A DNA stretch of 64,000 nt from Burkholderia sp. BCC0506. Its GTDB lineage: Bacteria; Pseudomonadota; Gammaproteobacteria; Burkholderiales; Burkholderiaceae. The notes under the pieces are model-generated. The model had not been told where the DNA came from and made no database searches. It worked only from the letters and a program-made list of their open reading frames with translations. The stretch is from contig NZ_CADFEN010000002.1 in NCBI RefSeq assembly GCF_902833145.1, forward strand, positions 704,702-768,701, in the 5' to 3' direction. This document shows, piece by piece, positions 4,218 through 53,955 of this stretch; the stretch's first letter is position 1; each line of letters begins with the position of its first letter. Position numbers and translations under genes: made by a program.

Positions 4218-5759
4218 TTACTGTCGGCCGTAGGTATCGTCGAAGCGGACGATGTCGTCCTCGCCGAGATACGCGCCCGACTGCACCTCGATCAGTTCGA
4301 GCGGCATCTTGCCCGGGTTCTCCAGGCGATGCGAGACGCCGAGCGGAATGTACGTCGATTCGTTTTCGGACAGCAGGAACGTTTCGTCGCCGCGCGTGAT
4401 GCGCGCGGTGCCGCGCACGACGATCCAGTGTTCGGCGCGATGGTGGTGCATTTGCAGCGACAGTTGCGCGCCCGGCTTCACGACGATGCGTTTCACCTGG
4501 AAGCGCTCGCCCATGTCGACCGAGTCGTAGTGGCCCCACGGACGATGCACCTTGCGGTGATCGGTCGCTTCCGTGCCCTGTCGCGCCTTGATGTGCGCGA
4601 CGATCTTCTTCACGTCCTGCACGCGCGATTTGTCCGCGACGAGCACCGCGTCGGGCGTTTCGACGACGACCAGGTTCTGCGTGCCGACGCACGCGACGAG
4701 CCGGCTTTCCGAATGCGCGAACGTCGAGTCGGCGCCTTCGAACAGCACGTGGCCGCGGCCGACGTTTCCGGCGTCGTCCTTCGGCGAGATCTGCCAGATC
4801 GCATCCCACGAGCCGACGTCCGACCAGCCCGCGTCGAGCGGCACGACGACGCTCTCGCACAGTTGCGGCTGGCTCGCGAGCGGCTCCATCACCGCGTAGT
4901 CGATCGAGTTCGACGGCGACGCGGCGAAAGCGTCGCGATCGACGCGGAAGAAATCGCCGTCGTCCCGGCCCTGTGCGACGGCCTGCTCGCAGGCCGCATG
5001 GATCGCCGGTTCGAGCTGCCGGATCGCCTTCAGCCAGACCGACGCGCGCACGATGAAGATCCCGCTGTTCCACCAGTATTCGCCCGATGCGACGTACTGC
5101 TGCGCGAGTTCGAGGTGCGGCTTCTCGACGAAACGGTCGAGGCGGCGTACGTCGAGGGCGCCCGTTCCGGCGTCGCCGAGCGGGGCGCCGACGCGGATGT
5201 AGCCGTAGCCGGTTTCCGCGCGCGTGGGCACGATGCCCATCGTCGCGATCTTGCCTTGCGCCGCGCACTGCACGCCGGCCGCGACGGCCGCGTGAAAGCG
5301 CGGCAGGTCGGCGACCGCATGGTCGGCCGGCATCACGGTCATCACCGCGTCGTTGCCGTTCGCGACGAGCCGCAGCGCGGCGAGCGTCAGCGCGGGCGCG
5401 GTGTCGCGGCCGAGCGGCTCGAGCATGATGGTCGCCCGCTTGGCCGTCAGGCGCAGTTGTTCGGCGGTCGTGAAGCGGTGATCCTCGCCGCACACGATCA
5501 GCACGTCGTCGTTCAGCGGGTGGTCGGCCGTCAGGCCATCGAGGCGCAGCGCAGTGGACTGCAGCAGCGAATGCTCGCCGAGCAGGCCGATCAGCTGCTT
5601 CGGAAAACGCTCGCGCGACATCGGCCACAGGCGCGTGCCGGAACCGCCGGCGAGAATCACGGGCTGCACGGCCAGACGTGTGCCGGCGGTGGGCGTACCG
5701 GCGGCCGGTGCGGCGGAAGAGGAATGGCGCGTTTCGGCGACCACTGCCGGAGCATTCAT
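4218..5759 (-). CDS. bceA: Mannose-1-phosphate guanylyltransferase / mannose-6-phosphate isomerase
   Basis: A 513-residue bifunctional enzyme that isomerises fructose-6-phosphate to mannose-6-phosphate and makes GDP-mannose from mannose-1-phosphate, supplying the sugar donor for cepacian. The N-terminal nucleotidyltransferase carries the signature LAGGSGTRLWPMSRERFPKQ near residue 35. The C-terminal cupin isomerase domain has VKPGAQLSLQMHHHRAEHW with metal-binding histidines and ends FDDTYGRQ. The ATG at 5759 is chosen because GGAGAG lies just upstream; the longer reading back to 5933 has no family similarity. It is divergent from bceB, sharing a 431-bp regulatory region, and matches bceA in the known cepacian cluster. 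ManC/WbpW is the wider family. Confidence 0.95.
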   Translation of the reverse strand: MNAPAVVAETRHSSSAAPAAGTPTAGTRLAVQPVILAGGSGTRLWPMSRERFPKQLIGLLGEHSLLQSTALRLDGLTADHPLNDDVLIVCGEDHRFTTAEQLRLTAKRATIMLEPLGRDTAPALTLAALRLVANGNDAVMTVMPADHAVADLPRFHAAVAAGVQCAAQGKIATMGIVPTRAETGYGYIRVGAPLGDAGTGALDVRRLDRFVEKPHLELAQQYVASGEYWWNSGIFIVRASVWLKAIRQLEPAIHAACEQAVAQGRDDGDFFRVDRDAFAASPSNSIDYAVMEPLASQPQLCESVVVPLDAGWSDVGSWDAIWQISPKDDAGNVGRGHVLFEGADSTFAHSESRLVACVGTQNLVVVETPDAVLVADKSRVQDVKKIVAHIKARQGTEATDHRKVHRPWGHYDSVDMGERFQVKRIVVKPGAQLSLQMHHHRAEHWIVVRGTARITRGDETFLLSENESTYIPLGVSHRLENPGKMPLELIEVQSGAYLGEDDIVRFDDTYGRQ

Positions 5760-6190
5760 GATGACACTCTCCACGGTTGAAGTCAGTGCCTGTCGTTGTA
5801 GCATGAAGTAAATCGACAATAAAACCGGACCCAATGCCGGATATCCGTCGCGCATTCGTCCGGCAGAATTTTCAGCGCCCGCATCGGCCGACAATAAAAA
5901 AGTAAAAAATAATTCCGGTCGTCGGTCGGACACGACCGCCCATCAAGGGTAAGCGGAAGGCGTAAGGAAGCCGAAAAAATCCCCGTTCCCGCCCGATTCG
6001 GGAAAACCTGCCGATTTAAATAAAAAAGATCGCGGCAAGAATTTCCGATTATTTTTCGAAATACTTGTGCGCTTGAGGCGGAATTTTCTTGTCGCTTCAA
6101 TAGCGTCATGCAACGTTTGATTCGAATGTGCGGCACGGGCTGCACAAGGCGCTGTTCGGCAAACGCCTGTTCAAAGAAGAGGAAACAGAC
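5760..6190. promoter_or_regulatory. Divergent bceA / bceB-K regulatory region
   Basis: This 431-bp intergenic region must hold the promoters for bceA (leftward) and bceB-K (rightward). It contains several A-rich runs (for example around 5890-5910 and 6012-6028) unlike the coding DNA on either side. An inverted repeat at 6032-6095 is described separately. No clear -24/-12 or -35/-10 pair could be fixed by eye. Confidence 0.55.
6032..6095. promoter_or_regulatory. Imperfect inverted repeat upstream of bceB
   Basis: GCGGCAAGAATTTCCG-like arm at 6032-6046 is mirrored by CGGAATTTTCTTGTCGC at 6079-6095, with an AT-rich stretch between. It could be a regulator site or an RNA stem in the bce leader. 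It lies about 95 bp before the bceB start. Confidence 0.4.
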
Positions 6191-7564
6191 ATGTTGAGCG
6201 TGCTGGCGAGAGTCATCGATATCGCGATGGTCGTGACGGGCGCGTTGATCGCGGCCGCGCTGCACGACGGCAGCATCGGGCTCAGCGACCTGCAGCGCAC
6301 GACGGTGCTGTTCGACTGCCTGCTGGTCGTCGTGTTCTTTCCGGCCGTCGGCATCTACCAGTCGTGGCGCGGCAAGCGTCTCGTCGGGCTGGTGGTCCGC
6401 GTGGCGTTCGCGTGGCTCGTGGTGGAGCTCGCGGGCATCCTGCTGAGCTTCAGCTTTCACCAGTCGGGCGACCTGTCGCGGCTCTGGCTGGGTTACTGGG
6501 CGCTCGTGACGATGGCGCTGCTCGCCGGCTCGAAGGCCTGCGTGCACGTGGTGCTGCGGCAGTTGCGCCGCGGCGGGTACAACCTGAAGGCGGTCGCGAT
6601 CGTCGGCGGCACGCCGGCGGCGCGGCGGCTGATCGCGCAGATGCGGGCGCGGCCGGAAGCCGGCTTCAACCCGGTGTGCGTGTACGACGAAAGCGAGGCG
6701 CCGGGCGAAGTCGCGCTCGACGACGTGCGCATCGAGCGGCAGTTCGACTCGCTGGTGTGGCTGGTGCGCAGTCGTGCGATCAGCGAGCTGTGGCTCACGC
6801 TGCCGATCACGGAGGAGCGCCGGATTCACCAGATCGTGACGGTGTTCCGCCACGACTTCGTGAACATCCGCTTCATTCCGGACGTGCGCACGCTGTCGTT
6901 CTTCAACCAGGAAGTGGTCGAGGTGCTCGGCGTGCCGGCGATCAACCTCGCGGCGTCGCCGATTACCGACGTGCGGATCCTGCCGAAGTTCGTGTTCGAC
7001 CGGCTGTTCGCGCTGGCGGCGCTCACCGCGCTCGCGCCGGTGATGGTGCTGATCGCGGTCCTGATCAAGCTGACCTCGCGCGGGCCGGTGTTCTTTCGGC
7101 AGAAGCGCAAGGGCATCGACGGGCACGAGTTCGAGATCTACAAGTTTCGCTCGATGAAGGTGCACCAGGAAGTGGCCGGGCAGGTCACGCAGGCGACGAA
7201 GAACGACGCGCGCGTGACGCCGGTCGGCCGGTTCCTGCGCCGCACGAGCCTCGACGAGTTGCCGCAGTTCATCAACGTGCTGAAGGGCGAGATGTCGGTG
7301 GTGGGCCCGCGCCCGCATGCGCTCGCGCACGACGACATCTACAAGGATCTGGTCAAGGGCTACATGTTCCGCTACCGGATCAAGCCCGGCATCACCGGGT
7401 GGGCGCAGATCAACGGCTATCGCGGCGAGACCGACCAGATCGAGAAGATGATGGGCCGCGTGAAGCTCGACCTGTACTACATGCAGAACTGGTCGTTCTG
7501 GCTCGACATCAAGATCGTCGTGCTGACGCTGTGGAAAGGCTTCACCGGCAGCAACGCGTACTGA
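6191..7564 (+). CDS. bceB: Undecaprenyl-phosphate glucose phosphotransferase
   Basis: A 457-residue inner-membrane protein that starts cepacian repeat-unit assembly by moving glucose-1-phosphate from UDP-glucose to undecaprenyl phosphate. Hydrophobic segments fill the first 120 residues, followed by a Rossmann-like region ([20 protein letters not shown]) and a fifth membrane segment ([20 protein letters not shown]). The C-terminal bacterial sugar transferase domain has [39 protein letters not shown] and VGPRPHAL. The ATG at 6191 is preceded by AGAGGA; a GTG at 6128 would add 21 residues. First gene of the bceB-K operon. Confidence 0.94.
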
Positions 7565-7638
7565 CACCGACGCGCCGCGTCGCGCAGGCATTCCGGTTTT
7601 CCGAATTTCGAATCATTGGTCAAGGGGTCCGACACATC

Positions 7639-9051
7639 ATGAATCTGACTATCATCGGCAGCGGTTACGTAGGGCTCGTCACCGGCGCCTGTCTCGCCGA
7701 CATCGGGCACGACGTGTTCTGTCTCGACGTCGACCAGGCAAAGATCGACATCCTGAACGCCGGCGGCGTGCCGATCCACGAGCCGGGCCTGAAGGAAGTC
7801 ATCGCGCGCAACCGCTCGGCCGGCCGCCTGCGCTTCTCGACCGACGTCGAGGCCGCGGTCGCGCACGGCGACGTGCAGTTCATCGCGGTCGGCACGCCGC
7901 CCGACGAGGACGGCTCGGCCGACCTCCAGTACGTGCTCGCGGCGGCGCGCAACATCGGCCGCTACATGACGGGCTTCAAGGTGATCGTCGACAAGTCGAC
8001 GGTGCCGGTCGGCACGGCCGAGCGCGTGCGCGCGGCGGTCGCCGAGGAGCTCGCGAAGCGCGGCGGCGACCAGATGTTCTCGGTCGTGTCGAACCCGGAA
8101 TTCCTGAAGGAAGGCGCGGCCGTCGACGATTTCACGCGGCCGGACCGCATCGTGATCGGCTGCGACGACGACGTGCCGGGCGAGCGCGCCCGCGAGCTGA
8201 TGAAGAAGCTCTACGCACCGTTCAACCGCAATCACGAGCGCACGCTGTACATGGACGTGCGCTCGGCCGAGTTCACGAAATACGCGGCGAACGCGATGCT
8301 CGCGACGCGCATCTCGTTCATGAACGAGCTGGCGAACCTCGCCGACCGCTTCGGCGCCGACATCGAGGCCGTGCGCCGCGGGATCGGCTCCGACCCGCGC
8401 ATCGGCTACCACTTCCTGTACGCGGGTTGCGGCTACGGCGGCTCGTGCTTCCCGAAGGACGTCGAGGCGCTGATCCGCACGGCCGACGAGCACGGCCAGT
8501 CGCTGCAGATCCTGAAGGCCGTGTCGTCGGTCAACGCGACGCAAAAGCGCGTGCTCGCCGAGAAGATCGTCGCGCGCTTCGGCGAGGACCTGTCCGGCCG
8601 CACGTTCGCGCTGTGGGGGCTCGCGTTCAAGCCGAACACGGACGACATGCGCGAGGCGCCGAGCCGCGAGCTGATCGCCGAGCTGCTGTCGCGCGGCGCG
8701 CGCGTCGCGGCGTACGACCCGGTCGCGCAGCAGGAAGCGCGTCGCGTGCTCGCGCTCGATCTCGCCGATCACCCGAGCTGGCTCGAGCGCCTGACGTTCG
8801 TCGACGACGAGGCGCAGGCCGCGCGCGACGCCGACGCGCTCGTGATCGTCACCGAATGGAAGGCGTTCAAGAGCCCCGATTTCGTCGCGCTCGGCCGCCT
8901 GTGGAAGTCGCCCGTGATCTTCGACGGCCGCAACCTGTACGAGCCGGAGACGATGAGCGAGCAGGGCATCGAGTACCACCCGATCGGCCGGCCGGGCTCG
9001 CGCCAGGCGGTCGCCGCTCGCGTGCCGGGCGCCGCGCGCGCCAGCGCGTAA
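7639..9051 (+). CDS. bceC: UDP-glucose 6-dehydrogenase
   Basis: A 470-residue cytoplasmic NAD-dependent enzyme that oxidises UDP-glucose to UDP-glucuronate, a cepacian precursor. The N-terminal NAD-binding motif is [20 protein letters not shown]. The catalytic cysteine lies in [15 protein letters not shown], and [17 protein letters not shown] marks the C-terminal domain. Length is normal for the family. It follows bceB by 74 bp and precedes bceD by 30 bp in the same operon. Confidence 0.96.
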
Positions 9052-9081
9052 CCCGTTTTCCGTCACTCGTTACGAGACGCC

Positions 9082-9525
9082 ATGTTCCGGAACATCCTGA
9101 TCGTCTGCCACGCGAACGTCTGCCGCAGCCCGGCGGCGGAAATGCTGTTCAAGTCGCACGCCGCGTCGCGCGGCGGCCCGCGTCCGACATTCCATTCGGC
9201 CGGCGTCCACGCGAACGACGGCGACGGCATCGATCCGGTGATGCGGCAACTGCTCGCCGAGCGGGGCGTCGATGCGACGACCCATCGCTCGCGGCGGCTG
9301 TCGCGCCGGATCGTGCGCGACGCCGACCTGATTCTCGTCAGCGAGCGCCGACAGATCGCGGCCGTCGAGGCGGTCGATCCGTTCGCGCGCGGCAAGGTTC
9401 ACCTGCTCGGCAAGTGGGAAGGGGCCGAGATTGCGGACCCGCATGGCGGCCCCGAGGCCGACTACCGCGAGAGCTACTCACTGATCGAACGTCTGGTTCA
9501 AGGATGGCTACAGAAACTATGCTGA
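9082..9525 (+). CDS. bceD: Low-molecular-weight protein-tyrosine phosphatase
   Basis: A 147-residue cytoplasmic phosphatase of the Wzb type. The active-site loop CHANVCRSP lies near residue 10 (CX5R), and the general-acid aspartate is in IADPHGG near residue 118. It is expected to dephosphorylate the C-terminal tyrosines of BceF and so tune chain length and export. Its stop codon overlaps the bceE start region (the ATGCTGA at 9519-9525), which indicates translational coupling. Confidence 0.95.
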   Translation: MFRNILIVCHANVCRSPAAEMLFKSHAASRGGPRPTFHSAGVHANDGDGIDPVMRQLLAERGVDATTHRSRRLSRRIVRDADLILVSERRQIAAVEAVDPFARGKVHLLGKWEGAEIADPHGGPEADYRESYSLIERLVQGWLQKLC

Positions 9526-10697
9526 AACGCCCGATGCGCCCGGTGGCGCTTGCCGTCGCGCTGACGACTTTCCTGTCGGCCTGTGCGACCGCGCCCGGCA
9601 ACTACCTCGATTCGTCGAACCTGAAGGACGAAGGCCGGCAGGAAGCGGCCGAAACCTATCCGGTTCATTACATCGACGCCAAAGTGGTGATGGACCAGCT
9701 GCAGAAAGCGCAGGTCGACCATCCGCTGCCGCCGGGACGTTACACCGATCCGTCGCAGTACACGTATCGCGTCGGCCCGCAGGACATCCTCGGCGTCACC
9801 GTGTGGGATCACCCGGAACTGACGACGCCGCAGGGCCAGTCGTTCTCGAGCGGCGGCAACACGACGCAATCGGTCGCGGGCGCGTTGCAGCAGCCGTATA
9901 CGACCGCGCTGCCGGGCCAGGCCGATCCGTACGGCCAGACGGTCGCCGCCGACGGCACGATCTTCTTCCCGTTCGTCGGCCGCATCCGCGTGGCGGGCAA
10001 GACGGTCGCGCAGATCCGCGACGAGATGGCGTCCAGCCTCGCGCGCTACGTGAAGAATCCGCAGCTCGACGTGCGCGTGCTGTCGTTCCGCAGCCAGAAG
10101 GTGCAGGTGACGGGCGAGGTGAAGCAGCCGGGCCCGCTCGCGGTGAGCGACGTGCCGCTCACGCTCGTCGACGCGATCTCGCGCTCGGGCGGCTCGACCG
10201 CCGAGGCCGACCTGCAGCGCGTGCGCCTGACGCGCGACGGCAAGCTGTACACGCTCGATGCGAACGGCGTGCTCGATCGCGGCGAAGTGAAGCAGAACGT
10301 GATGCTGCAGCCGGGCGACATCGTCAACGTGCCGGATCGCAGCGACAGCCGCGTGTTCATCATGGGCGAGGTCAAGACGCCGGTCACGGTGCCGATGCTC
10401 AAGGGCAGGCTGACCATCGCCGATGCGCTCACCGCGGGCGGCGGGATCCTCGACACCGACGCGAACCCGCGCAAGATCTACGTGATGCGCGGAATGCGCG
10501 ACAACCCGACGAAGCCTGAAGTGTTCCGTCTCGACATGACGCAGCCCGATGCGCTGATGCTGTCGAGCCGCTTCCCGCTTCAACCGCTCGACGTCGTCTA
10601 CGTCAGCACGGCCAGCTCGGTGCAGTTCAACCGCGTGCTGCAGCAGGTGCTGCCGACGATCCAGACGATCTTCTACATGCGGCAAATCACGCGCTGA
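9519..10697 (+). CDS. bceE: Polysaccharide export outer-membrane lipoprotein (Wza-like)
   Basis: A 392-residue lipoprotein that would form the outer-membrane channel for cepacian. The N-terminus MLKRPMRPVALAVALTTFLS is followed by the lipobox Cys (LSAC). A polysaccharide export domain (YRVGPQDILGVTVWDHPEL, FFPFVGRIRVAGKTVAQIR) and two SLBB regions (VTGEVKQPGPLAV; FIMGEVKTPVTVPMLKG) follow. An in-frame ATG at 9504 would add five residues, but the AAGGA then touches the start, so 9519 is preferred. It overlaps bceD and precedes bceF by 50 bp. Confidence 0.93.
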   Translation: MLKRPMRPVALAVALTTFLSACATAPGNYLDSSNLKDEGRQEAAETYPVHYIDAKVVMDQLQKAQVDHPLPPGRYTDPSQYTYRVGPQDILGVTVWDHPELTTPQGQSFSSGGNTTQSVAGALQQPYTTALPGQADPYGQTVAADGTIFFPFVGRIRVAGKTVAQIRDEMASSLARYVKNPQLDVRVLSFRSQKVQVTGEVKQPGPLAVSDVPLTLVDAISRSGGSTAEADLQRVRLTRDGKLYTLDANGVLDRGEVKQNVMLQPGDIVNVPDRSDSRVFIMGEVKTPVTVPMLKGRLTIADALTAGGGILDTDANPRKIYVMRGMRDNPTKPEVFRLDMTQPDALMLSSRFPLQPLDVVYVSTASSVQFNRVLQQVLPTIQTIFYMRQITR

Positions 10698-10747
10698 TAG
10701 CCCGCCGGGGCGGCGTCCGCCCCCCGGCACCACTCAAGCGGGAACGA

Positions 10748-12973
10748 ATGGTGAACACGCAAGCGAAACACTCCTACGCGGACCTGGCCGCGAAAACCGA
10801 GGAAGAGGACGTCGTTCTCGGCCAGTTGCTCCAGGTCATCATGGACGACATCTGGCTGCTGCTCGGCATCGCGGTGATGGTGGTCGCGCTCGCCGGCCTC
10901 TACTGCTTCGTCGCGAAGCCGGTCTACCAGGCGGACGTGCACGTGCGGGTCGAGGGCAACGACAACACGACGCAGGCGCTCACGCAGACGCAGACGGGCG
11001 CGATGATCAACAGCGGGCCGCAGCAGGCGCCGACCGATGCGGAAATCGAGATCATCAAGAGCCGCGGCGTCGTCGCGCCGGTCGTCGACCAGTTCAAGCT
11101 GAACTTCTCGGTCGCGCCGAAGACGCTGCCGTTGATCGGCAGCCTCGCCGCGCGCCTCGCGACGCCCGGCGAGCCGGCACGGCCGTGGCTCGGCCTGAAG
11201 TCGTATGCGTGGGGCGGCGAAATCGCCGACGTCGACTCGATCAGCGTCGTGCCGGCGCTCGAGGGCAAGAAGCTGACGTTGACGGCCGGCCCGAACGGCA
11301 CCTATTCGCTGGTCGACGAGAACGGCACGCGGCTGCTGGCCGGCCGCGTCGGCGAGTCGGCGCAGGGCGGCGGCGTGACGCTGCTCGTGCAGAAGCTCGT
11401 CGCGCGACCCGGCACGCAGTTCACGGTGGTCCGATACAACGATCTCGACGCGATCACCGGCTTTCAGGCGGGCATCTAGGTGACCGAGCAGGGCAAGCAG
11501 ACGGGCGTCGTGCAGATCTCGCTCGAAGGCAAGGACCCGGACCAGACGGCCGCGATCGCGAACGCGCTCGCGCAGTCGTACCTGAACCAGCACGTGGTCG
11601 CGAAGCAGGCCGAAGCGACCAAGATGCTCGACTTCCTGAAGGGCGAGGAGCCGCGCCTGAAGGCCGACCTCGAACGCGCGGAAGCCGCGCTGACGCAGTA
11701 TCAGCGCACGTCGGGCTCGATCAACGCGAGCGACGAGGCGAAGGTCTATCTCGAAGGCAGCGTGCAGTACGAGCAGCAGATCGCCGCGCAGCGCCTGCAG
11801 CTCGCGTCGCTCGCGCAGCGCTTCACCGATTCGCACCCGATGGTGATCGCCGCGAAGCAGCAGCTCGCCGAGCTGCAGGGCGAGAAGGACAAGTTCAGCA
11901 ACCGCTTCCGCAGCCTGCCGGCAACCGAGGTGAAGGCCGTCCAGCTGCAGCGCGACGCGAAGGTCGCCGAGGACATCTACGTGCTGCTGCTGAACCGCGT
12001 GCAGGAACTGTCGGTGCAGAAGGCCGGCACGGGCGGCAACATCCACCTAGTCGATTCGGCGCTGCGTCCGGGCGCGCCGGTCAAGCCGAAGAAGGTGCTG
12101 ATCCTGTCGGCCGCCGTGTTCCTCGGGCTGATCCTCGGCACGGGCATCGTGTTCCTGCGCCGCAACTTGTTCCAGGGCATCGAGGATCCGGACCGCATCG
12201 AGCGCGCGTTCAACCTGCCGCTGTACGGGCTGGTGCCGCAAAGCGCCGAGCAGGTGAAGCTCGACGCGGCGGCGGAGAAGGGCGGCAGCCGCGCGCGGCC
12301 GATCCTCGCGAGCCTGCGTCCGAAGGACCTGAGCGTCGAAAGCATGCGCAGCCTGCGTACCGCGATGCAGTTCGCGATGATGGATGCGAAGAACCGCGTG
12401 ATCGTGCTGACCGGCCCGACGCCGGGCATCGGCAAGAGCTTCCTGACGGTGAACCTCGCGGTGCTGCTCGCGCATTCGGGCAAGCGCGTGCTGCTGATCG
12501 ACGCCGACATGCGTCGCGGGATGCTCGATCGCTACTTCGGCCTCACCGTGCAGCCGGGCCTGTCCGAGCTGCTGAGCGATCAGTCGCCGCTCGAGGAAGC
12601 GATCCGCGAGACGCCGGTGCAGGGCCTGTCGTTCATCGCGGCCGGCACGCGTCCGCCGAACCCGTCGGAGCTGCTGATGTCGACGCGCCTGCCGCAATAC
12701 CTCGAAGGGCTCGGCAAGCGCTACGACGTGGTGCTGATCGATTCGCCGCCGGTGCTGGCGGTGACCGACGCGACCATCATCGGCCGCATGGCCGGCTCGA
12801 CGTTCCTCGTGCTGCGCTCGGGCATGCACACCGAAGGCGAGATCGCCGATGCGATCAAGCGCCTGCGCACCGCGGGCGTCGATCTGGAAGGCGGGATCTT
12901 CAACGGCGTGCCGCCGAAGGCGCGCGGCTACGGCCGCGGCTATGCGGCCGTGCACGAATACCTGAGCGCTTGA
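10748..12973 (+). pseudogene. bceF: Tyrosine autokinase / Wzz-type chain-length regulator, interrupted by in-frame TAG
   Basis: Read through, this is a 741-residue BY-kinase of Wzc type. The order is an N-terminal membrane segment (WLLLGIAVMVVALAGLYCFV), a periplasmic Wzz domain, a second membrane segment (VLILSAAVFLGLILGTGIVF), and a cytoplasmic kinase with Walker A GPTPGIGKS near residue 556, Walker A' LLIDADMRRG, Walker B VVLIDSPPV and C-terminal tyrosines (GYGRGYAAVHEY). Codon 244 (11477-11479) is TAG, in the middle of a conserved periplasmic stretch (ITGFQAGI-stop-VTEQGKQTG). The reading frame is otherwise unbroken, as expected from one CAG-to-TAG change. A 243-residue fragment would be made. 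Reinitiation at the adjacent GTG (11480) would give a 497-residue piece lacking the first membrane segment, so normal function is unlikely. A sequencing error cannot be excluded. Confidence 0.9.
11477..11479 (+). other. Premature amber codon inside bceF
   Basis: In-frame TAG, followed directly by GTG. The upstream bases AGGCGGG could act as a weak ribosome site for that GTG, so limited reinitiation is conceivable. Confidence 0.9.
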
Positions 12974-13035
12974 CCGCATTGCACGACACCGGGCCGGCGC
13001 GAGCGGCGCCTGCCCGGCCGACTGGAGAACCCTCG

Positions 13036-13995
13036 ATGAAAATTTCCGTGCTCGTTCCGACTTACCGGCGCCCCGCCGACCTCGCGCGCTGCCTGCTGGC
13101 GCTGCAGCGGCAGCAGCGGCTGCCCGACGAGGTGATCGTCGTCGCGCGCCCGGAGGACGACGCCACGCACGAACGGCTCGCCGATCCGGCGGTCGGCGGC
13201 GCGCTGCCGCTGCGCATCGTGCCGGTCGACGTGCCGGGGCAGGTGGCCGCGCTGAACAAGGGGCTCGACTCGGCGAACGGCGACATCGTCGCGATCACCG
13301 ACGACGATGCGGCGCCGCGTCCCGACTGGCTCGCGCGCATCGAGGCCGTATTCCGGGCCGACGCGCGCGTCGGCGCGGTCGGCGGACGCGACTGGGTGCA
13401 CGAGAAAGGCCGCGTGCTGGACGAATCGAGAGAGCGGGTGGGCCAGCTCACGCTGTCCGGCAAGATCGTCGGCAACCATCATCTCGGCGTCGGCGGCGCG
13501 CGCGAAGTCGACATGCTCAAGGGCGCGAACATGAGCTACCGGCGCGCCGCGATCGAGCGGCTGCGCTTCGATACGCGGCTGCGCGGCGCGGGCGCGCAAG
13601 TGCACAACGACATGGGCTTCAGCATGCACGTGCGGCGCGAAGGCTGGAAGCTCGTCTACGACCCGGCGATCGCCGTCGATCACTTCCCGGCCGAGCGCTT
13701 CGACGACGACCGGCGCGATGCCGCGTCGCTGAACGCGATCAGCAACGGCGCGTACAACCTGCATCTGATCCTGCGCGAGCATCTGCCGCCGCTGCGGCGC
13801 GAGATCGCGTGGTGGTGGTGGACGCTGGTCGGTACGCGCGTCTATCCCGGCTTCGCGCACGTGCTGCTGTCGCTGCCTGGCGCCCGGCGCGAGCGTGTGC
13901 TCGCGCACTGGCGCGCGGTGCGCCGCGGCGCGCGCGATGCGCGCCGCACGAATCTCGCCCCCCACCGTGCGGCGATGCCGCCGGTGACGTCTTGA
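13036..13995 (+). CDS. bceG: Glycosyltransferase family 2
   Basis: A 319-residue GT-A glycosyltransferase. The N-terminal signature is KISVLVPTYRRPADLARCLL, and the nucleotide/metal-binding acidic cluster is AITDDDAAPRPDWL near residue 95. A downstream acceptor region has FDTRLRGAGAQVHNDMGFS. There is no strong membrane segment apart from a hydrophobic C-terminal stretch (WWWWTLVGTRVYPGFAHVLL). GGAG lies upstream of the ATG. Within the operon it follows bceF and would add one sugar of the cepacian repeat; which one is not visible from sequence. Confidence 0.92.
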   Translation: MKISVLVPTYRRPADLARCLLALQRQQRLPDEVIVVARPEDDATHERLADPAVGGALPLRIVPVDVPGQVAALNKGLDSANGDIVAITDDDAAPRPDWLARIEAVFRADARVGAVGGRDWVHEKGRVLDESRERVGQLTLSGKIVGNHHLGVGGAREVDMLKGANMSYRRAAIERLRFDTRLRGAGAQVHNDMGFSMHVRREGWKLVYDPAIAVDHFPAERFDDDRRDAASLNAISNGAYNLHLILREHLPPLRREIAWWWWTLVGTRVYPGFAHVLLSLPGARRERVLAHWRAVRRGARDARRTNLAPHRAAMPPVTS

Positions 13996-14038
13996 ACGGC
14001 CCGCGCGCACCGCGCGCGGCCACCTCCGGAGGGCTCGC

Positions 14039-15184
14039 ATGACGACCAAGGCTGCAACGAAAGTCCACGTCCATCTGTTCTACGGCGCCGATCCGCGTAC
14101 CTACCGGAAAGGCGACGATATCGGCTGCCTGTACGGCTATCACCATGCCGAATCCGACGAATTCCGGCTGACCTATTCGCAGGACGCCGGCGAGAACCGT
14201 GTCGTGAGCGTCGCGCGCCGCGCGCTGAAGGCCGCGCTCGGCTTCGATATCGTGCATGCGTGGCGCAACCGCGCGGCGCTGCTCGATACCGACGTGATCT
14301 GGACGCACACCGAGCAGGAGCATCTGGCCGCCGCGCTGATCCTGAAGCTCGCCGGCGCGCAGGGCAAGCGTCCGCTGCTGCTCGCGCAGAGCGTGTGGCT
14401 GTTCGACAAGTGGGGCAGCTTCGGCGGCCCGCGCCGCTGGCTGTACCGCAAGCTGCTCGCGCGCGCAGACGCCCTGACCACGCTGGCCCGCGACAACGCC
14501 GACCTGTGCCGCCGCACCCTCGGGCGCGAGGCCGAGTTCGTCTATTACGGGCTGAACACGAAGGATTTCCCGCCGGTCGAGCCGCAGCAATGGAAACCGA
14601 ACCGGCCGCTGCGGATCGCGGCGATCGGCAACGACCGCGACCGCGACTGGCGCACGTTCCTCGCCGCGTTCGGCGGGGACGAACGCTACGACGTGCGGCT
14701 CGCGACGCGCCGCCGCGTGCCGCGCGAATGGCACGCGCCGAACGTGAAGATCGGCCCGGCGGCGGGGCTCGCGAAGCAGCACGAGCTGTACGCGTGGGCC
14801 GACGTGATCGTCGTGCCGCTGCGACCGAATTTTCACGCGTCGGGCATCACCGTGATGCTCGAGGCGGCGGCCGTCGGCAAGCCGATGATCGTGTCCGACG
14901 TGGGTGGCCTGAGCGACTATTTCCCGCACGATACGGCCGCCTACGTGCCGGCGTTCGACGCGCAGGCGATGCGTCAGGCCGCCGACCGTTTCGTCGCCGA
15001 CCCGGCGGCGGCGCTCGACTGCGCGCGGGCGGCCGCCGCGTGCCTGCGCGAGCGCGACCTGACCACGCAGGCGTTCGCCGAGCAGCACGTGCGGATCACG
15101 CGCGACATGCTGCGCCGGCGCCGCACGCCCGCGTCGGCCGGCGTCGCGATGCCGCTCGCGGATTCGAGCGCGTCGTCGCAGTGA
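14039..15184 (+). CDS. bceH: Glycosyltransferase (GT-B fold)
   Basis: A 381-residue glycosyltransferase with a GT4-like C-terminal donor-binding region (GITVMLEAAAVGKPMIVSDV) containing the E-X7-type region typical of retaining GT-B enzymes, although only one Glu is obvious. The N-terminal half (VHVHLFYGADPRTYRKGDDI) is divergent. Strong CGGAGG upstream of the ATG. It ends 10 bp before bceI. The donor and linkage are not predictable from sequence. Confidence 0.9.
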   Translation: MTTKAATKVHVHLFYGADPRTYRKGDDIGCLYGYHHAESDEFRLTYSQDAGENRVVSVARRALKAALGFDIVHAWRNRAALLDTDVIWTHTEQEHLAAALILKLAGAQGKRPLLLAQSVWLFDKWGSFGGPRRWLYRKLLARADALTTLARDNADLCRRTLGREAEFVYYGLNTKDFPPVEPQQWKPNRPLRIAAIGNDRDRDWRTFLAAFGGDERYDVRLATRRRVPREWHAPNVKIGPAAGLAKQHELYAWADVIVVPLRPNFHASGITVMLEAAAVGKPMIVSDVGGLSDYFPHDTAAYVPAFDAQAMRQAADRFVADPAAALDCARAAAACLRERDLTTQAFAEQHVRITRDMLRRRRTPASAGVAMPLADSSASSQ

Positions 15185-15194
15185 GTGCGGATCG

Positions 15195-16661
15195 ATGAGC
15201 ACGATTGCCGCCGAGCGCGCGCCGTCGCGCGCCCGCAGCTGGTTCGCCGAGCCGAAGCACTGGGCCGGGCAGGCCGGGCTGTGGACGTTTACCGCCGCGC
15301 TGATCGCCATCCACCAGGGCAAGGTGCTGACGCTCGCGTTCCCGGTGCTGGCGATCGGGGTGGGCATCTGGCTGTATTTCAAGAGCCCGGCGCGCTATGT
15401 CGGCTTCATGTGGTGGGTGTGGTTCCTGAGCCCGGAAGTGCGGCGCCTGGCCGACTGGTCGAAGGGCGCGTTCACGCCGACGAGCCTGATCCAGGTCGCG
15501 CCGCTCGCGGTGACGATGATCGCCGGCTTCGGGCTGATCAGGCATTACCGCGTGCTCGCGCAGCGGCGCGGCATCCCCGTGCTGCTGATGCTGTTCGGGC
15601 TCGTGTACGCGTACCTCGTCGGCATCGTGTCGAGCGGCGTGATGGCCGCGACCTACGATCTCGCGAACTGGCTGTACCCGATCCTGATCGGCTTTCACAT
15701 CATGGTGAACGCGCGCGACTATCCCGAGTATCGCGACGTGCTGCTGTCCACGTTCATGTGGGGCATGCTCGTGATGGGCCTGTACGGCGTCGTGCAGTAT
15801 TTCGTGATGCCGCAGTGGGACGTGCTGTGGATGGTCGGCTCGCAGATGGGCTCGCAGGGCGAGCCGGTGCCGTACGGCGTGCGCGTGTTCAGCACGATGA
15901 ATTCGTCCGGACCGTTCGCGTTCGCGATGATGGGCGCGCTGGTGTTCGTGCTGGTCGCGCCGCAGAAGATCCGCTGGTTCGCGGGCGCCGCCGGTTTCGT
16001 GTCGTTCGCGCTGTGTCTCGTGCGCTCGACGTGGGGCGGCTGGGTGATCGCGCTCGCGATCCAGCTCGTGCAATCGAGCAACCGCGTACGGATGCGGATC
16101 CTGATCAGCGGCGTCGTGCTGGTCGGGCTGTGCGTGCCGCTCCTGACCGTCGGGCCGGTGGCCGACCGCCTCGGCCAGCGCCTGCAGTCGATCACGAACC
16201 TGAAGGACGACCGCAGTTACGACGACCGCAACAAGTTCTACGCGACCTTCGCGCAGACGGCGTTCACCGACGTCGCCGGCGAAGGGATGGGCGCGACCGG
16301 CGCGTCCACGAAGCTGTCGAGCGACAGCGGCGAGCTCGGCAAGTACGGCAGCTTCGACAGCGGCGTGATGAACGTGCCGTTCGTGCTCGGCTGGCCGGGC
16401 ACGCTGCTGTATCTCGCCGGCGTCGTGATGCTGTTCGGCCGCACGCTGCGCGCGGCGTTCAAGCTGCGCCAGGACAAGTTCGTCGGCGCGTGCCTGAGCC
16501 TGTGCCTGTCGACCTTCGCGATGCTCGTGTTCACGAACTCGCTGATCGGCACCGGCGGCCTGCTGATGTTCACGGCCATTTTTTCGATACTTGCCGCGGC
16601 GCACTGGCAGAAGGCGCAACGCCTGCTGGCCGCCGCGCGTTCACGGGGAGGCGACCATTGA
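15195..16661 (+). CDS. bceI: Polysaccharide polymerase (Wzy-like)
   Basis: A 488-residue inner-membrane protein with about ten to twelve hydrophobic segments (for example TFTAALIAIHQGKVLTLAFP, VRMRILISGVVLVGLCVPLL, MLVFTNSLIGTGGLLMFTAI) and a large periplasmic loop near residues 330-400 (YDDRNKFYATFAQTAF, GEGMGATGAST). This topology and position match the O-antigen polymerase role that links cepacian repeats in the Wzx/Wzy route. Sequence similarity within Wzy proteins is always low, so topology and context carry the call. Its end overlaps the bceJ start by 4 bp. Confidence 0.88.
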   Translation: MSTIAAERAPSRARSWFAEPKHWAGQAGLWTFTAALIAIHQGKVLTLAFPVLAIGVGIWLYFKSPARYVGFMWWVWFLSPEVRRLADWSKGAFTPTSLIQVAPLAVTMIAGFGLIRHYRVLAQRRGIPVLLMLFGLVYAYLVGIVSSGVMAATYDLANWLYPILIGFHIMVNARDYPEYRDVLLSTFMWGMLVMGLYGVVQYFVMPQWDVLWMVGSQMGSQGEPVPYGVRVFSTMNSSGPFAFAMMGALVFVLVAPQKIRWFAGAAGFVSFALCLVRSTWGGWVIALAIQLVQSSNRVRMRILISGVVLVGLCVPLLTVGPVADRLGQRLQSITNLKDDRSYDDRNKFYATFAQTAFTDVAGEGMGATGASTKLSSDSGELGKYGSFDSGVMNVPFVLGWPGTLLYLAGVVMLFGRTLRAAFKLRQDKFVGACLSLCLSTFAMLVFTNSLIGTGGLLMFTAIFSILAAAHWQKAQRLLAAARSRGGDH

Positions 16662-17842
16662 GAATCGCGATCGTCACGCACGTCGTGCGACATAACGACG
16701 GGCAGGGCCGCGTCAATTACGAAATCGCGCGCGCGGCGCTGGCCGAACACTACGAGGTCACGCTGGTCGCGTCGCATGTCGCGCCCGAGCTGCTGGCCGA
16801 CCCGCGCGTGCGCTGGGTGCCGGTGAAGGTCGGCGGCTTCTGGCCGTCGAATCTCGTCAAGCAGCAGGTGTTCGCGCTGAAGAGCGCGGCCTGGCTGCGC
16901 GCGCACCGCGGCGAATACGACGTGCTGCACGTGAACGGCTTCATCTCGTGGATCAAGGCCGACGTCAATACCGCGCACTTCGTGCACGGCGGCTGGTTCA
17001 AGAGTCCGTACTATCCGTTCGGGCCCACGAAGGGGCTGTGGTCGGCTTACCAGTACGTCTACACACGCGTGAATACCGCGCTCGAGCGCTGGGCGTACAA
17101 GCGTTCGCGCGCGATCACCGCCGTGTCGCAGAAGGTGGCCGACGAGATCGCCGGGCTCGGCATCGACAGCCGCAAGATCAGCGTGATCTACAACGGCGTC
17201 GACGGCAGCGCGTTCGCGGCCGCGCAGGCCGATCGCGCGGCGTTCAAGCTGCCGGACGACGCGTTCCTGCTGCTGTTCGTCGGCGATCTCCGCACGCCGC
17301 GCAAGAATCTCGGCACCGTGCTCAAGGCGCTGACGAAGCTGCCCGCGAACGTGCATCTGGCGGTGGCCGGCTATCTGCCCGGCAGCCCGTATCCCGAGGA
17401 GGCGCGTGCGCTCGACATCGATTCGCGCGTGCATTTCCTCGGTCTCGTGAAGAACATGCCGACGCTGATGCGCTCGGTCGACGCGTATGTGTTCCCGTCG
17501 CGCTACGAAGCGATGAGCCTGTCGCTGCTGGAGGCGATGGCGGCCGGGCTGCCGGTCGTCACCGCGCGCACGGCGGGCGGCGCGGAAATCATCACGCGCG
17601 AATGCGGGATCGTGCTGGAGGACCCGGACGATCCGGCCGCGCTCGCGCAGGCGATCGACGCGCTCGCGGCGTCGCGCGACACCTGCCGCGCGATGGGCGA
17701 CGCGGCCCGCGAACTGATGACCCGTTTCGGCTGGGCGCACATGGGCGCCCAGTACGTCGCGCTTTACCGGCGCATCGGCCAACCCACGCAGCCGTCCGCG
17801 TTCGAGCGGGTCGAGCATGCAATCACGCAGGAGCAACCGTGA
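16658..17842 (+). CDS. bceJ: Glycosyltransferase family 4
   Basis: A 394-residue GT-B enzyme. The N-terminus RIAIVTHVVRHNDGQGRVNY is typical of GT4, and the C-terminal donor site is PSRYEAMSLSLLEAMAAGLP (E-X7-E). The start is TTG at 16658, overlapping the bceI stop (TTGA). No ATG fits, and GGGGAGG lies 6-7 bp upstream, so the TTG start is well supported. It ends with TGATG shared with bceK, so the two are translationally coupled. Confidence 0.92.
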   Translation: MRIAIVTHVVRHNDGQGRVNYEIARAALAEHYEVTLVASHVAPELLADPRVRWVPVKVGGFWPSNLVKQQVFALKSAAWLRAHRGEYDVLHVNGFISWIKADVNTAHFVHGGWFKSPYYPFGPTKGLWSAYQYVYTRVNTALERWAYKRSRAITAVSQKVADEIAGLGIDSRKISVIYNGVDGSAFAAAQADRAAFKLPDDAFLLLFVGDLRTPRKNLGTVLKALTKLPANVHLAVAGYLPGSPYPEEARALDIDSRVHFLGLVKNMPTLMRSVDAYVFPSRYEAMSLSLLEAMAAGLPVVTARTAGGAEIITRECGIVLEDPDDPAALAQAIDALAASRDTCRAMGDAARELMTRFGWAHMGAQYVALYRRIGQPTQPSAFERVEHAITQEQP

Positions 17843-19008
17843 TGTCCCCATCTTCCCGGCCGATCAAATCGTTGCAGATCGGCATGCACTGGTTTCCCGA
17901 ACGCGCGGGCGGCCTCGACCGGATGTACTACTCGCTCGTCGGCGCGCTGCCCGGCGCGGGCGTCGAGGTGCGCGGGCTCGTGGCCGGCTCGCCGAAGGTC
18001 GCCGACGACACGGGCGGCGCGATCCAGGGCTTCGGGCCCGCGTCGCAGCCGCTCGCGCGCCGGATGCTCGCAGCGCGACGCGCGCTGCGCGACGAGATCC
18101 GCAGCGAGCGGCCGGACGTGATTTCGTCGCACTTCGCGCTGTATACGTTCCCGGGGCTCGACGTGACGCGCGGGATTCCGCAGGTGTCGCACTTCCAGGG
18201 GCCGTGGGCCGACGAAAGCCAGGTCGAGGGCGCCGCGTCGCTCGGGCAGCGCGCGAAGCGCTATCTCGAACAGGCCGTCTATACGCGCTCGTCGCGGCTG
18301 ATCGTGCTGTCGCAGGCATTCGGCCAGATCCTGACGAACCGCTACGGAATCGATCCGTCGCGCGTGCGCGTGATTCCCGGCTGCGTCGATACCGCGCAGT
18401 TCGACACGCCGCTCACGCCCGCCGAGGCGCGGCACAAGCTGCAACTGCCGCAGGACCGGCCGATCGTGCTGGCCGTGCGCCGGCTCGTGCGGCGCATGGG
18501 GCTCGAGGACCTGATCGACGCGATCGGCCTCGTCAAGCGCCGCCACCCGGACGTGCTGCTGCTGATCGCCGGCAAGGGCAAGATCGGCGAGGAGCTGCAG
18601 CAGCGCATCGACGACGCCGGGCTGCAGGACAACGTGAAACTGCTCGGCTTCGTGCCCGACCACCATCTCGCGGCGCTGTACCGCGCGGCGACGGTCAGCG
18701 TCGTGCCGACGGTCGCGCTGGAAGGCTTCGGGCTGATCACGGTCGAATCGCTGGCGTCCGGCACGCCGGTGCTGGTCACGCCGGTCGGCGGGCTGCCGGA
18801 GGCGGTCGCCGGGTTGTCGAACGATCTCGTGCTGCCGTCGACGGGCGCGGATGCAATCGCCGAAGGGCTCGGCGGCGCACTGTCCGGCGCGATCGCGCTA
18901 CCCGACGAGGCCGCGTGCAAGCGCTATGCGCGCGATCATTTCGACAATGCGGTGATCGCGCGGCGCGTGGCCGGCGTCTACGAAGAGGCGATCCGGGCGG
19001 CCGGCTGA
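17842..19008 (+). CDS. bceK: Glycosyltransferase family 4
   Basis: A 388-residue GT-B enzyme, last gene of the operon. GMHWFPERAGGLDRMYYSLV near the N-terminus is the acceptor-side glycine motif, and VPTVALEGFGLITVESLASG is the C-terminal E-X7-E donor motif. Its ATG overlaps the bceJ stop by one base. A GC hairpin with four Ts follows the operon at 19189-19220. Confidence 0.92.
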   Translation: MSPSSRPIKSLQIGMHWFPERAGGLDRMYYSLVGALPGAGVEVRGLVAGSPKVADDTGGAIQGFGPASQPLARRMLAARRALRDEIRSERPDVISSHFALYTFPGLDVTRGIPQVSHFQGPWADESQVEGAASLGQRAKRYLEQAVYTRSSRLIVLSQAFGQILTNRYGIDPSRVRVIPGCVDTAQFDTPLTPAEARHKLQLPQDRPIVLAVRRLVRRMGLEDLIDAIGLVKRRHPDVLLLIAGKGKIGEELQQRIDDAGLQDNVKLLGFVPDHHLAALYRAATVSVVPTVALEGFGLITVESLASGTPVLVTPVGGLPEAVAGLSNDLVLPSTGADAIAEGLGGALSGAIALPDEAACKRYARDHFDNAVIARRVAGVYEEAIRAAG

Positions 19009-19037
19009 GCGCCTGCGGCGCGCACCTCGCGCGCCGG

Positions 19038-19147
19038 ACCGAAGCGGGACCGAAGCGGAACCGAAGCGGGACCGAAGCGGGACCGAAGCGGAACCGAAGC
19101 GGAACCGAAGCGGAACCGAAGCGGAACCGAAGCGGAACCGAAGCGGA
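19038..19147. repeat. 11-bp tandem repeat, ten copies
   Basis: Ten head-to-tail units of ACCGAAGCGGN, where N is G in units 1, 3 and 4 and A in the others, followed by a partial ACCGAA. It sits 30 bp after bceK and before the operon hairpin. On the minus strand it reads as an open 11-residue periodic pattern, but no gene is supported. Such arrays often vary in copy number between strains. Confidence 0.93.
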
Positions 19148-19188
19148 ACCGAAAGCCGGACCGGCACGCGTGCGTGGCCGGTTCGCGT

Positions 19189-19220
19189 GCCGGCCGCCCG
19201 CCGAGGGCGGGCCGGCTTTT
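19189..19220 (+). terminator. Terminator of the bceB-K operon
   Basis: GCCGGCCGCCCGCC (19189-19202) can fold onto GGCGGGCCGGC (19206-19216), with TTTT following. It would end transcription from bceK after passing through the tandem repeat. Confidence 0.6.
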
Positions 19221-19248
19221 CCCGTTGGGTCCTCACGTCCAATGCGCA

Positions 19249-20484
19249 CTACGTGCGCCGCAGCGTCGCGGCCCATACGCCGAGCGCGGCCACGCTCACT
19301 CCCGCGCCGAGCACGCAGACGCCCGTCCATCCGGCGCGTGCATACATCATCGTCGACGCAATCGCACCGAGCCCGCTGCCGGCCGAATAGAACAGCATGT
19401 AGCAGCCGACGAGGCGCGCCTGCGCGTCGGGCCGCGCGCCGAGAATCATGCTCTGGTTGACGACGTGCACGGCTTGCCCGCCGACGTCGAGCAGCACGAT
19501 GCCGACGATCAGCAGCGCAATCGACGTATCGCCGAACGCGAGCGGCAGCCACGAGCACGCGAGCAGTGCGAGCGCGGCGCCGGTCGTCGCTTCGCCGCGC
19601 CCGCGATCGGCGAGCCGGCCCGCGCGGGCGGCCGCCGCCGCACCGAGTGCGCCGACGAGGCCGAATGCGCCGATCTGCGTGTGCGACATCGCGTGCGGGG
19701 GCGCGCTCAGCGGCAGCACGAGCGCGCTCCAGAAGATGCTGAACGCCGCGAACATCAACAGCGCGATCGCGCCGCGCACGCGCAGCACGCGTTCGTCGCG
19801 CAGCAGCGACACCATCGAGCGCAGCAGCGCCGCGTAACCGATGCGTTCGCGCGGTTCGCGCATATCCGGCAGCAGCCGCGACAGCGCGACCAGCATCGCG
19901 ATCGCGAGCGCGCCCGACACGAGATAGACGGCCCGCCACCCCGCGAGGTCGGTGACGACACCGGCCAGCGAGCGTGCGGCCAGCAGCCCGACCACGACGC
20001 CGCCCTGCGCGGCGCCCACCACGCGCCCGCGTTCGCCTGCGCCGGCGAGGGCGGCCGAGCATGCGATCAGCCCTTGCGTCATCGCGGTGCCGAGCAGCCC
20101 GACCGCGACCATTCCGGCCAGCAGCGCGACGCGTGTCGACGCCGCGGCCACGCCGATGCACGCCGCCGCCAGCAGCAGAAGCTGCACGGCGATCAGACGC
20201 CTGCGGTCCAGCAGGTCGCCGAGCGGCACGACGAACAGCAGCGCGAGCGCGCAGCCGAGCTGCGTCGCCGTGATGACGCCGCCGACCGCAGCCTGCGACA
20301 CGCCGAAATCCCGTGCGATCGAATCGAGCAGCGGCTGCGCGTAGTAGACGTTCGCGACGCTCGCCGCGCAGCAGACGGCCAGCAATGCGACGCGCGCCGA
20401 CGACAGGCGGCCGTCGTCGGCGGGATCGATCGCATCGGCTGACGCATCCGATGCAACGGTGCCGGAATGACAGGATGATTCCAT
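19249..20484 (-). CDS. MFS transporter
   Basis: A 411-residue inner-membrane protein with about twelve hydrophobic segments and the loop 2-3 motif region GDLLDRRRLIAVQLLLLAAA, typical of major facilitator drug or metabolite exporters (DHA1-like). The N-terminal part includes SVANVYYAQPLLDSIARDF, which is characteristic of the YnfM-like subgroup. The ATG at 20484 has GAGGAAG upstream. It is divergent from an HxlR-type regulator 155 bp away, which probably controls it. The substrate is unknown. Confidence 0.88.
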   Translation of the reverse strand: MESSCHSGTVASDASADAIDPADDGRLSSARVALLAVCCAASVANVYYAQPLLDSIARDFGVSQAAVGGVITATQLGCALALLFVVPLGDLLDRRRLIAVQLLLLAAACIGVAAASTRVALLAGMVAVGLLGTAMTQGLIACSAALAGAGERGRVVGAAQGGVVVGLLAARSLAGVVTDLAGWRAVYLVSGALAIAMLVALSRLLPDMREPRERIGYAALLRSMVSLLRDERVLRVRGAIALLMFAAFSIFWSALVLPLSAPPHAMSHTQIGAFGLVGALGAAAAARAGRLADRGRGEATTGAALALLACSWLPLAFGDTSIALLIVGIVLLDVGGQAVHVVNQSMILGARPDAQARLVGCYMLFYSAGSGLGAIASTMMYARAGWTGVCVLGAGVSVAALGVWAATLRRT

Positions 20485-20639
20485 GGCTTCCTCACGCAAT
20501 GCAGTTGCAATTTGAAACTGGATTGGAGTGTAGGGAAAGTGGTTTTAAAATGCAACCTGTTGCGGTGGCGGGCATCGGGCCCGCGCACGGATGGCCGGCA
20601 TGCGCGCGAAGGCGCGCCGGCACGCTTGCGGAGAGGAAC

Positions 20640-21110: not shown

Positions 21111-21176
21111 GCGCGATGCGCGGCAGCCCGTTCGTCGGCCGGCCTGGCGCGACGCGCATCGCGGCGTGCGGCGCGC

Positions 21177-22616: not shown

Positions 22617-22736
22617 GCGTCCATCGTAGGCGGTGACCGGCATGCGATGTTTCAGTGGAACGTGAAGCGTCGATACGGATGCCGACGCATGCCGCTTGCT
22701 ACGTGCGCCGATGCGTATCCAGCGACGCCGATGCGT

Positions 22737-53499: not shown

Positions 53500-53516
53500 C
53501 GGGCCCTCGCGGTATC

Positions 53517-53882: not shown

Positions 53883-53955
53883 GCGTCGCCTCGCCGGAGA
53901 GGCCGTATTTGGGGGCAAGCGGAGCCCTACCTTGTCACGCGGTTCCGGTGCTGCG

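What the first reader, a model, noticed from the sequence alone, without database searches (positions are those of the whole stretch)
11477..11479. Amber codon splits the cepacian tyrosine kinase gene bceF
The gene reads in one frame for 2226 bp except for a single TAG at codon 244, flanked by well-conserved protein sequence (ITGFQAGI before, VTEQGKQTG after). One CAG-to-TAG change explains it. The break removes the second membrane segment and kinase from the N-terminal part, and a restart at the next GTG would leave the kinase with a misplaced periplasmic segment. Loss of BceF in related strains abolishes cepacian, so this strain is predicted to be non-mucoid. A relation to the mucoid/non-mucoid switch in chronic infection is an inference.
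Basis: partly seen in the sequence, partly recalled or inferred. Interest (0 to 1): 0.85.

Follow-up and report, generated by a model that had tools for sequence, protein, structure and literature searches.

The report
Stop codon breaks slime kinase gene
In this one Burkholderia genome a recent single stop codon cuts in two the gene for a membrane kinase needed to make the slimy sugar coat cepacian, so the strain is predicted to have lost that coat, an ordinary kind of gene loss already known in relatives.

Summary
TAG at 11477-11479 is in frame at codon 244 of a 2226-base gene that is otherwise open. The two pieces, searched apart, are the N-terminal and the kinase part of a Wzc/BceF tyrosine kinase. 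The ten other bce-I genes show no break. The break looks young: apart from the stop, the window's private bceF codons are 8 silent, 0 amino-acid-changing. Best reading: a recent nonsense allele that inactivates BceF, predicted non-mucoid. That is a new instance of a known kind: bceF deletion gives non-mucoid colonies, and a natural bceF deletion is on record. New here: three other mid-gene TAGs verified in 1.86 Mb of the same genome, so bceF is not a special target. Four of four TAG is unremarkable given codon use (P 0.17-0.20). No CTA tRNA was found, but the tRNA-Tyr segment is missing from the assembly. A base-call error is not excluded; chronic infection is untestable here.

The parts
11477..11479 (+). 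In-frame TAG, codon 244 of bceF
   Evidence: sense in 138 of 138 covered non-own loci
10748..11479 (+). 5' piece of bceF: 243 aa, first membrane segment (about residues 37-55), Wzz motif and WZC_N domain
   Evidence: Pfam PF02706 and PF23607; hydropathy
11480..12973 (+). 3' piece of bceF: 497-codon ORF starting with the GTG right after the stop; rest of the periplasmic region, GNVR, second membrane segment (about residues 206-224), BY-kinase domain with intact Walker motifs and three tyrosines near the C-terminus
   Evidence: PDB 6z0p BceF, residues 227-497
4218..5621 (-). bceA-like GMP/PMI bifunctional enzyme, divergent (start approximate)
   Evidence: TIGR01479; no break
6128..7564 (+). bceB-like undecaprenyl-phosphate glucose phosphotransferase
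   Evidence: TIGR03023; no break
7714..9051 (+). bceC-like UDP-glucose dehydrogenase (start approximate)
   Evidence: PF03721, TIGR03026; no break
9082..9525 (+). bceD-like low-molecular-weight tyrosine phosphatase
   Evidence: PF01451; no break
9519..10697 (+). bceE-like polysaccharide export protein
   Evidence: PF02563 and SLBB, found on the longer ORF 8427-10697; gene call; no break
13036..19008 (+). bceG- to bceK-like genes (family 2 and family 4 glycosyltransferases and one protein without a family match)
   Evidence: no break against four relatives; letters assigned by order, recalled

Best explanation
A recent single-base nonsense mutation inactivates bceF, the BY-kinase/co-polymerase of the Wzy-type cepacian pathway, in a Burkholderia strain whose nearest named matches include B. 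cepacia complex species. The ribosome ends at codon 244 and releases a 243-residue inner-membrane stub with the first membrane helix and part of the periplasmic domain. The second helix and the kinase are made, if at all, only by re-initiation at the adjacent GTG, and then without the first helix, so the periplasmic half would not be correctly exported (inferred). Without a full-length octamer that cycles between phosphorylated and free states, chain polymerisation and export fail and no cepacian is made (inferred from published bceF deletions). The stop, its absence from the relatives examined and its youth in this assembly are shown; loss of protein function and of mucoidy are inferred.
For: In-frame TAG without indel. 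Sense codon in 138 of 138 covered non-own loci: 58 loci of 38 unnamed genus genomes and 80 named Burkholderia and Paraburkholderia loci, between which genomes may recur. In 61 of 64 other genus genomes the first piece matches at 70% or more inside an open frame of at least 741 codons; own frame 319. Of 52-55 genes compared with each of four relatives, bceF is the only one with a mid-gene stop. Window-private codons in bceF: 8 silent, 0 changing, plus the stop. No CTA anticodon among 58 tRNA genes; RF1 frame intact. Deletion of bceF makes two B. multivorans strains non-mucoid (PMC10880607, passages).
Against: No reads and no second strain of the same species could be seen, so the base could be an assembly error. 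The GTG after the stop has a fairly good Shine-Dalgarno-like match (-6.3 kcal/mol; 7.2% of 2000 random places do as well), so some kinase may still be made. Two unbroken BY-kinase paralogs (35% and 38% identity) could in theory stand in. The tRNA-Tyr segment is missing from the assembly. No phenotype is known.
Confidence: 0.84

Rival explanations
1. The TAG is a base-call or assembly error, or a minority variant taken into the consensus, and the strain has an intact bceF.
For: Draft of 45 contigs, no reads at hand. The stop is the only private protein-altering codon in bceF, as one stray error would be. Three more single mid-gene TAGs occur in the scanned part.
Against: The site lies inside a long contig (position 716178 of 768701) and the gene is single copy, other matches being 38% identical or less. 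No other gene of the window has a mid-gene stop against four relatives. Window-private changes over 53 genes have a changing/silent ratio of 0.265, within 0.174-0.324 for the four relatives, so there is no sign of a burst of errors.
Confidence: 0.09
2. The gene is split but still works: translation ends at TAG and re-initiates at the adjacent GTG, giving a membrane stub and a kinase half that act together, as two-protein BY-kinases of Firmicutes do.
For: Stop and GTG abut; Shine-Dalgarno-like energy -6.3 against a background mean of -2.76 kcal/mol. The break lies beyond the Pfam WZC_N match, which ends at residue 229 of 243. Two-protein BY-kinases exist in Firmicutes (PMC8394532, passage).
Against: In Firmicutes the membrane adaptor and the cytoplasmic kinase are separate proteins; here the cut is inside the periplasmic region, and the second half begins with about 205 residues before its only membrane helix. 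None of the 138 covered non-own loci has this stop. No private amino-acid change that would suit a new split.
Confidence: 0.04
3. The strain reads UAG as an amino acid at useful rates (suppressor tRNA), so bceF and the other amber-bearing genes still give full-length proteins.
For: The four verified mid-gene stops are all TAG. tRNA-Tyr, a classic suppressor source (recalled), is not in the assembly although 7 of 8 genus mates searched show it.
Against: No CTA anticodon in the 58 tRNA genes found. Four of four TAG has P 0.17-0.20 from codon use alone. RF1 is intact. TAG still ends 21 of 147 called genes. tRNA-Gly(tcc) and tRNA-Thr(ggt), neighbours of tRNA-Tyr in 6 of 7 relatives, are missing too, so a plain assembly gap explains the absence.
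Confidence: 0.02

Closest known systems
Laboratory bceF deletions in B. multivorans P0213-1 and ATCC 17616 (PMC10880607, passages)
   Same: Loss of the same gene; non-mucoid colonies on mannitol medium.
   Different: Engineered full deletion; here a natural single stop with both halves still in place and no phenotype known.
Natural non-mucoid variant of B. multivorans with a 10-bp deletion in bceF (reviewed in PMC12096841, passages)
   Same: Spontaneous loss of bceF.
   Different: Small deletion, found after prolonged stationary phase at 42 C; 14 of the 15 variants there were hit in ompR. Here a nonsense change of unknown origin.
bceB frameshift of B. cenocepacia J2315 (PMC3584217 and PMC3584063, passages)
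   Same: One lesion in bce-I that explains lack of cepacian in a sequenced strain.
   Different: Other gene and kind of lesion. Relative G007 shows a split bceB match, while bceB is unbroken here.
Wzc/BceF BY-kinases (PDB 6z0p, 7nhr and others)
   Same: Domain order and Walker motifs.
   Different: Here divided by a stop in the periplasmic region.

Membership tests
BceF (BY-kinase of the cepacian cluster) | N-terminal Wzz/WZC_N region and C-terminal GNVR plus BY-kinase | tested here: met
   Pieces searched apart: PF02706, PF23607; PF13807, PF13614; NCBIfam Wzc positions 9-215 and 221-710 of 720
BceF (BY-kinase of the cepacian cluster) | Place in bce-I between bceE-like and bceG-like genes | tested here: met
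BceF (BY-kinase of the cepacian cluster) | Walker A, A', B at published positions | tested here: met
   556, 585, 661 (PMC8394532 passage)
BceF (BY-kinase of the cepacian cluster) | One uninterrupted chain of about 741 residues | tested here: not met
   TAG at codon 244; a broken allele, not a working member
Loss-of-function allele (pseudogene) | Intact orthologs in relatives | tested here: met
   Unbroken 741-residue orthologs in four relatives; 61 of 64 genus genomes have a frame of at least 741 codons, 2 have no close ortholog, 1 is divided over contigs
Loss-of-function allele (pseudogene) | Relaxed selection after the break | tested here: not met
   0 changing and 8 silent private codons: too young, or an error
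Loss-of-function allele (pseudogene) | No cepacian | not testable with these tools
   no phenotype data
Programmed recoding / amber suppression | tRNA with CUA anticodon | tested here: inconclusive
   none among 58 tRNA genes, but the tRNA-Tyr segment is absent from the assembly
Programmed recoding / amber suppression | Stop conserved in relatives | tested here: not met
   0 of 138 covered non-own loci

The most novel reading that the evidence does not exclude
The strain tolerates in-frame UAG: four conserved genes (bceF, a squalene-hopene cyclase, a chemotaxis receptor, an alanine-racemase-fold enzyme) carry one fresh TAG each, and no TGA or TAA was verified mid-gene in the part scanned, because a suppressor tRNA lying in an assembly gap (tRNA-Tyr is missing) reads UAG and keeps them partly expressed.
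Probability: 0.02. Interest if true: 0.75.

Novelty: new member of a known kind. Interest (0 to 1): 0.2.

Why it matters
If real, this strain or species reference should not be used as a cepacian producer, and annotation should list bceF as broken. It adds one natural nonsense allele to the known ways Burkholderia loses its slime. The other fresh nonsense alleles in the same genome warn against reading bceF loss as adaptation without reads and phenotype.

Tried and rejected
Tried: amber suppressor (58 tRNA genes read, no CTA; the tRNA-Tyr gap remains; one relative, G045, matched the pattern with CTA in the anticodon place, but ARAGORN finds no tRNA there). Mutator (MutS frame intact; other repair genes not examined). 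Old pseudogene (rejected: no private amino-acid change). Unusual evolution of the two halves (rejected: N-part median dN/dS 0.249 and C-part 0.104 for window against relatives, 0.299 and 0.109 among relatives; only full-length ungapped orthologs over 92% identity were used, 37 distinct of 40). Amber-specific process (not supported, P 0.17-0.20). Same-species strains: none reachable; the plasmid collection gave four Burkholderia records at 91.6-96.5% identity and one Paraburkholderia fragment; the codon at the site was not examined in these. Cited papers PMC1796985 and PMC6088159 are not held. For an amber in bceF: the search for Burkholderia, amber and bceF lists one paper, on drug modelling by its title; searches with 'nonsense mutation' and cepacian or Wzc were seen as listings only.

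Limits of the stop scan: it needs 60 codons of good coding bias on both sides, so it misses short pieces, and it covers 1,864,000 of 7,291,782 bases. Of 32 candidates, 4 were verified by family matches on both sides. One (C3:226405, TGA) had no family match on either side. One (C2:496067, TAG) is an MFS gene followed by a truncated regulator. One (C4:235721, TGA) looks by eye like a start-less LysR remnant. The other 25 have a start codon 0-11 residues behind the stop and were read by eye as gene junctions, not checked one by one. Control: G026, 262,038 bases, 0 candidates; 80 named loci, 1,664,119 bases, 4 candidates, of which one (L113) looks mid-gene by eye. These loci all come from the bceF region, so they are not a random sample, and whether the own load is unusual is not settled.

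Full report
What is there. The window is C2:704702-768701 of a 7.29-Mb, 45-contig genome. The best named matches of its bceF second piece are Burkholderia, B. cepacia complex species among them, at up to 99% protein identity; no tool names the own species. TAG stands at 11477-11479, in frame with the ATG at 10748, as codon 244 of a 2226-base frame with no other internal stop. The codon after it is GTG, which opens a 497-codon ORF.

Identity. The pieces were searched apart. The first (243 aa) matches Wzz and WZC_N, the second (497 aa) GNVR and an AAA/BY-kinase domain; both match the NCBIfam Wzc model, at positions 9-215 and 221-710 of 720. The second piece matches the solved BceF kinase domain 6z0p over residues 227-497. 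Walker motifs fall at 556, 585 and 661 with the stop counted as one codon, as printed for BceF (PMC8394532, passages), so nothing was inserted or lost. Around it lie bceA- to bceE-like genes and glycosyltransferases. The ten other genes from 4218 to 19008 align to those of four relatives without a stop; for bceB the comparison with G007 covers only 307 residues, because that gene is itself divided there, and one G026 gene (window 13036-13962) matches over 309 of 316 residues. A bce-II-like cluster lies on C11: gmd, an acyltransferase, a protein with a weak NHL match and a flippase; only part of it was read. The start of that flippase agrees with the bceQ primer printed in PMC8231446 (passage; my translation of the primer). 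Gene letters other than bceF are assigned by order and recall.

Absent from relatives, and young. Of 146 loci held, 138 non-own loci cover the site and all have a sense codon: 58 loci from 38 unnamed genus genomes and the 80 named loci, between which genomes may recur. Three own copies have the stop, and 5 loci (other places of the own genome, such as the paralogs) do not cover it. Of 64 other genus genomes, 61 match the first piece at 70% identity or more inside an open frame of at least 741 codons (own frame 319); G024 and G041 have no close ortholog and G025 is divided over contigs. For the genomes among these 61 that are not among the 38, the codon itself was not read by genome. Among 37 distinct orthologs of over 92% identity no stop occurs, and 16 of the 20 flanking positions are invariant. 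The window's private codons in bceF are 3 silent in the first part and 5 silent in the second, none changing an amino acid. dN/dS is 0.25-0.27 in the first and 0.035-0.079 in the second part against four relatives, and the same contrast holds among relatives, so it is a property of the protein, not a result of the break. Either the mutation is very recent or it is a base-call error.

Only break in the window. Genes called in four relatives (52, 53, 55 and 54 comparable) were aligned to the window: bceF was flagged with all four. Two further flags came from single relatives: one stop at column 480 of 486 of a G007 gene matched at 22616-21159, that is at the gene's end, and a partial match near 28544-28861 against G037 without a stop. 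In the reverse direction there were two matches cut by the edge of the fetched stretch (G026, G040) and a split bceB match in G007, which resembles the bceB frameshift reported for B. cenocepacia J2315 (PMC3584217, PMC3584063, passages).

Not the only one in the genome. Comparing 200 kb upstream with G026 (96 genes) gave four flags: a TAG at C2:673130, codon 183 of a 558-codon gene 98% identical to its ortholog; two stops in the last codons; and a TGA in a poorly matching end. The reverse comparison (101 genes) gave two flags, one split and one stop at the very end. A coding-bias scan of 1.864 Mb gave 32 candidates. Four have matching family parts on both sides: bceF; the C2:673130 chemotaxis receptor; C2:465335, an alanine-racemase-fold enzyme; and C1:171612, a squalene-hopene cyclase. 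All four are TAG. For the receptor and the racemase-fold enzyme the codon is sense in 29 of 29 other loci in each case (30 loci fetched per query, own included; 65 of 65 and 63 of 65 genomes matched). The cyclase could not be checked because its loci could not be cut. Given codon use, TAG is 65-67% of expected nonsense changes, and four of four has P 0.17-0.20. So there is no evidence for an amber-specific process, but bceF is one of several nonsense alleles, which weakens the idea that its loss was selected. The same scan found 0 candidates in 262 kb of G026 and 4, one of them perhaps mid-gene, in 1.66 Mb of named loci around bceF; this control is too small and too local to say that the own load is high. 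Window-private changes over 53 genes show a changing/silent ratio of 0.265, within the range of the four relatives (0.174-0.324), so there is no general burst of errors or mutations. The MutS frame is intact.

How it works. Shown: the reading frame ends at codon 244. Inferred: the ribosome stops there and releases a stub with the first membrane helix; the kinase half would need re-initiation at the adjacent GTG. The Shine-Dalgarno-like energy there is -6.3 kcal/mol, matched by 7.2% of 2000 random places, so low-level re-initiation is credible, but that product lacks the first helix and begins with about 205 residues that belong in the periplasm. BY-kinases are thought to work as octamers that link kinase cycling to the periplasmic part (PMC8394532, passage), so neither half should work. 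Removing bceF makes two B. multivorans strains non-mucoid on mannitol medium, and the P0213-1 mutant was restored in trans (PMC10880607, passages). A bceF mutant of B. cepacia IST408 made no exopolysaccharide (as cited in PMC3584063, passage). Two unbroken BY-kinase paralogs exist here (35% and 38%); whether the published strains carry the same paralogs was not checked.

Suppression. tRNA genes were sought by Rfam (58 matches) and all 58 read with ARAGORN: no CTA anticodon. tRNA-Tyr, tRNA-Gly(tcc) and tRNA-Thr(ggt) are absent from that list. A degenerate anticodon-arm pattern finds nothing in the own genome but finds tRNA-Tyr(gta) in seven of eight genus mates searched, in six of them followed by tRNA-Gly(tcc) and tRNA-Thr(ggt). 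The segment therefore probably lies in an assembly gap, and a suppressor form there cannot be formally excluded. RF1 is intact.

Verdict. It is a new instance of a known kind. The link to chronic infection is open.

Noticed in passing
G000:C2:673130 (L234:8429-8431), G000:C2:465335 (L270:632-634, minus), G000:C1:171612 (L300:11610-11612, minus): Three further conserved genes of the same genome (chemotaxis receptor, alanine-racemase-fold enzyme, squalene-hopene cyclase) are interrupted mid-gene by a TAG; for the first two the codon is sense in 29 of 29 other loci; the third was not checked in relatives.
   Followed up: partly
own genome G000: tRNA-Tyr, tRNA-Gly(tcc) and tRNA-Thr(ggt) are missing from the 45-contig assembly although genus mates carry them side by side; probably an assembly gap.
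   Followed up: partly
relative G007, counterpart of window 6128-7564: bceB match is split into two overlapping pieces, resembling the bceB frameshift reported for B. cenocepacia J2315.
   Followed up: partly
window 10748-12973: Among 37 close orthologs the N-part of BceF evolves much faster than the rest (median dN/dS 0.299 against 0.109), perhaps because it meets the polymer.
   Followed up: no
window 19000-22700 and 53500-56000: Collinearity with four relatives breaks here; of the four, genes at 53956-55660 match only G040, at dS over 0.4, and the gene at 21177-22523 matches only G007.
   Followed up: no
L271:10166-12298 (G000:C2:496067): An MFS transporter frame is followed, after a TAG, by a truncated LuxR-type response regulator, perhaps a deletion remnant.
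   Followed up: no
L213 (G000:C11:145017-145107): A selenocysteine tRNA gene is present.
   Followed up: no
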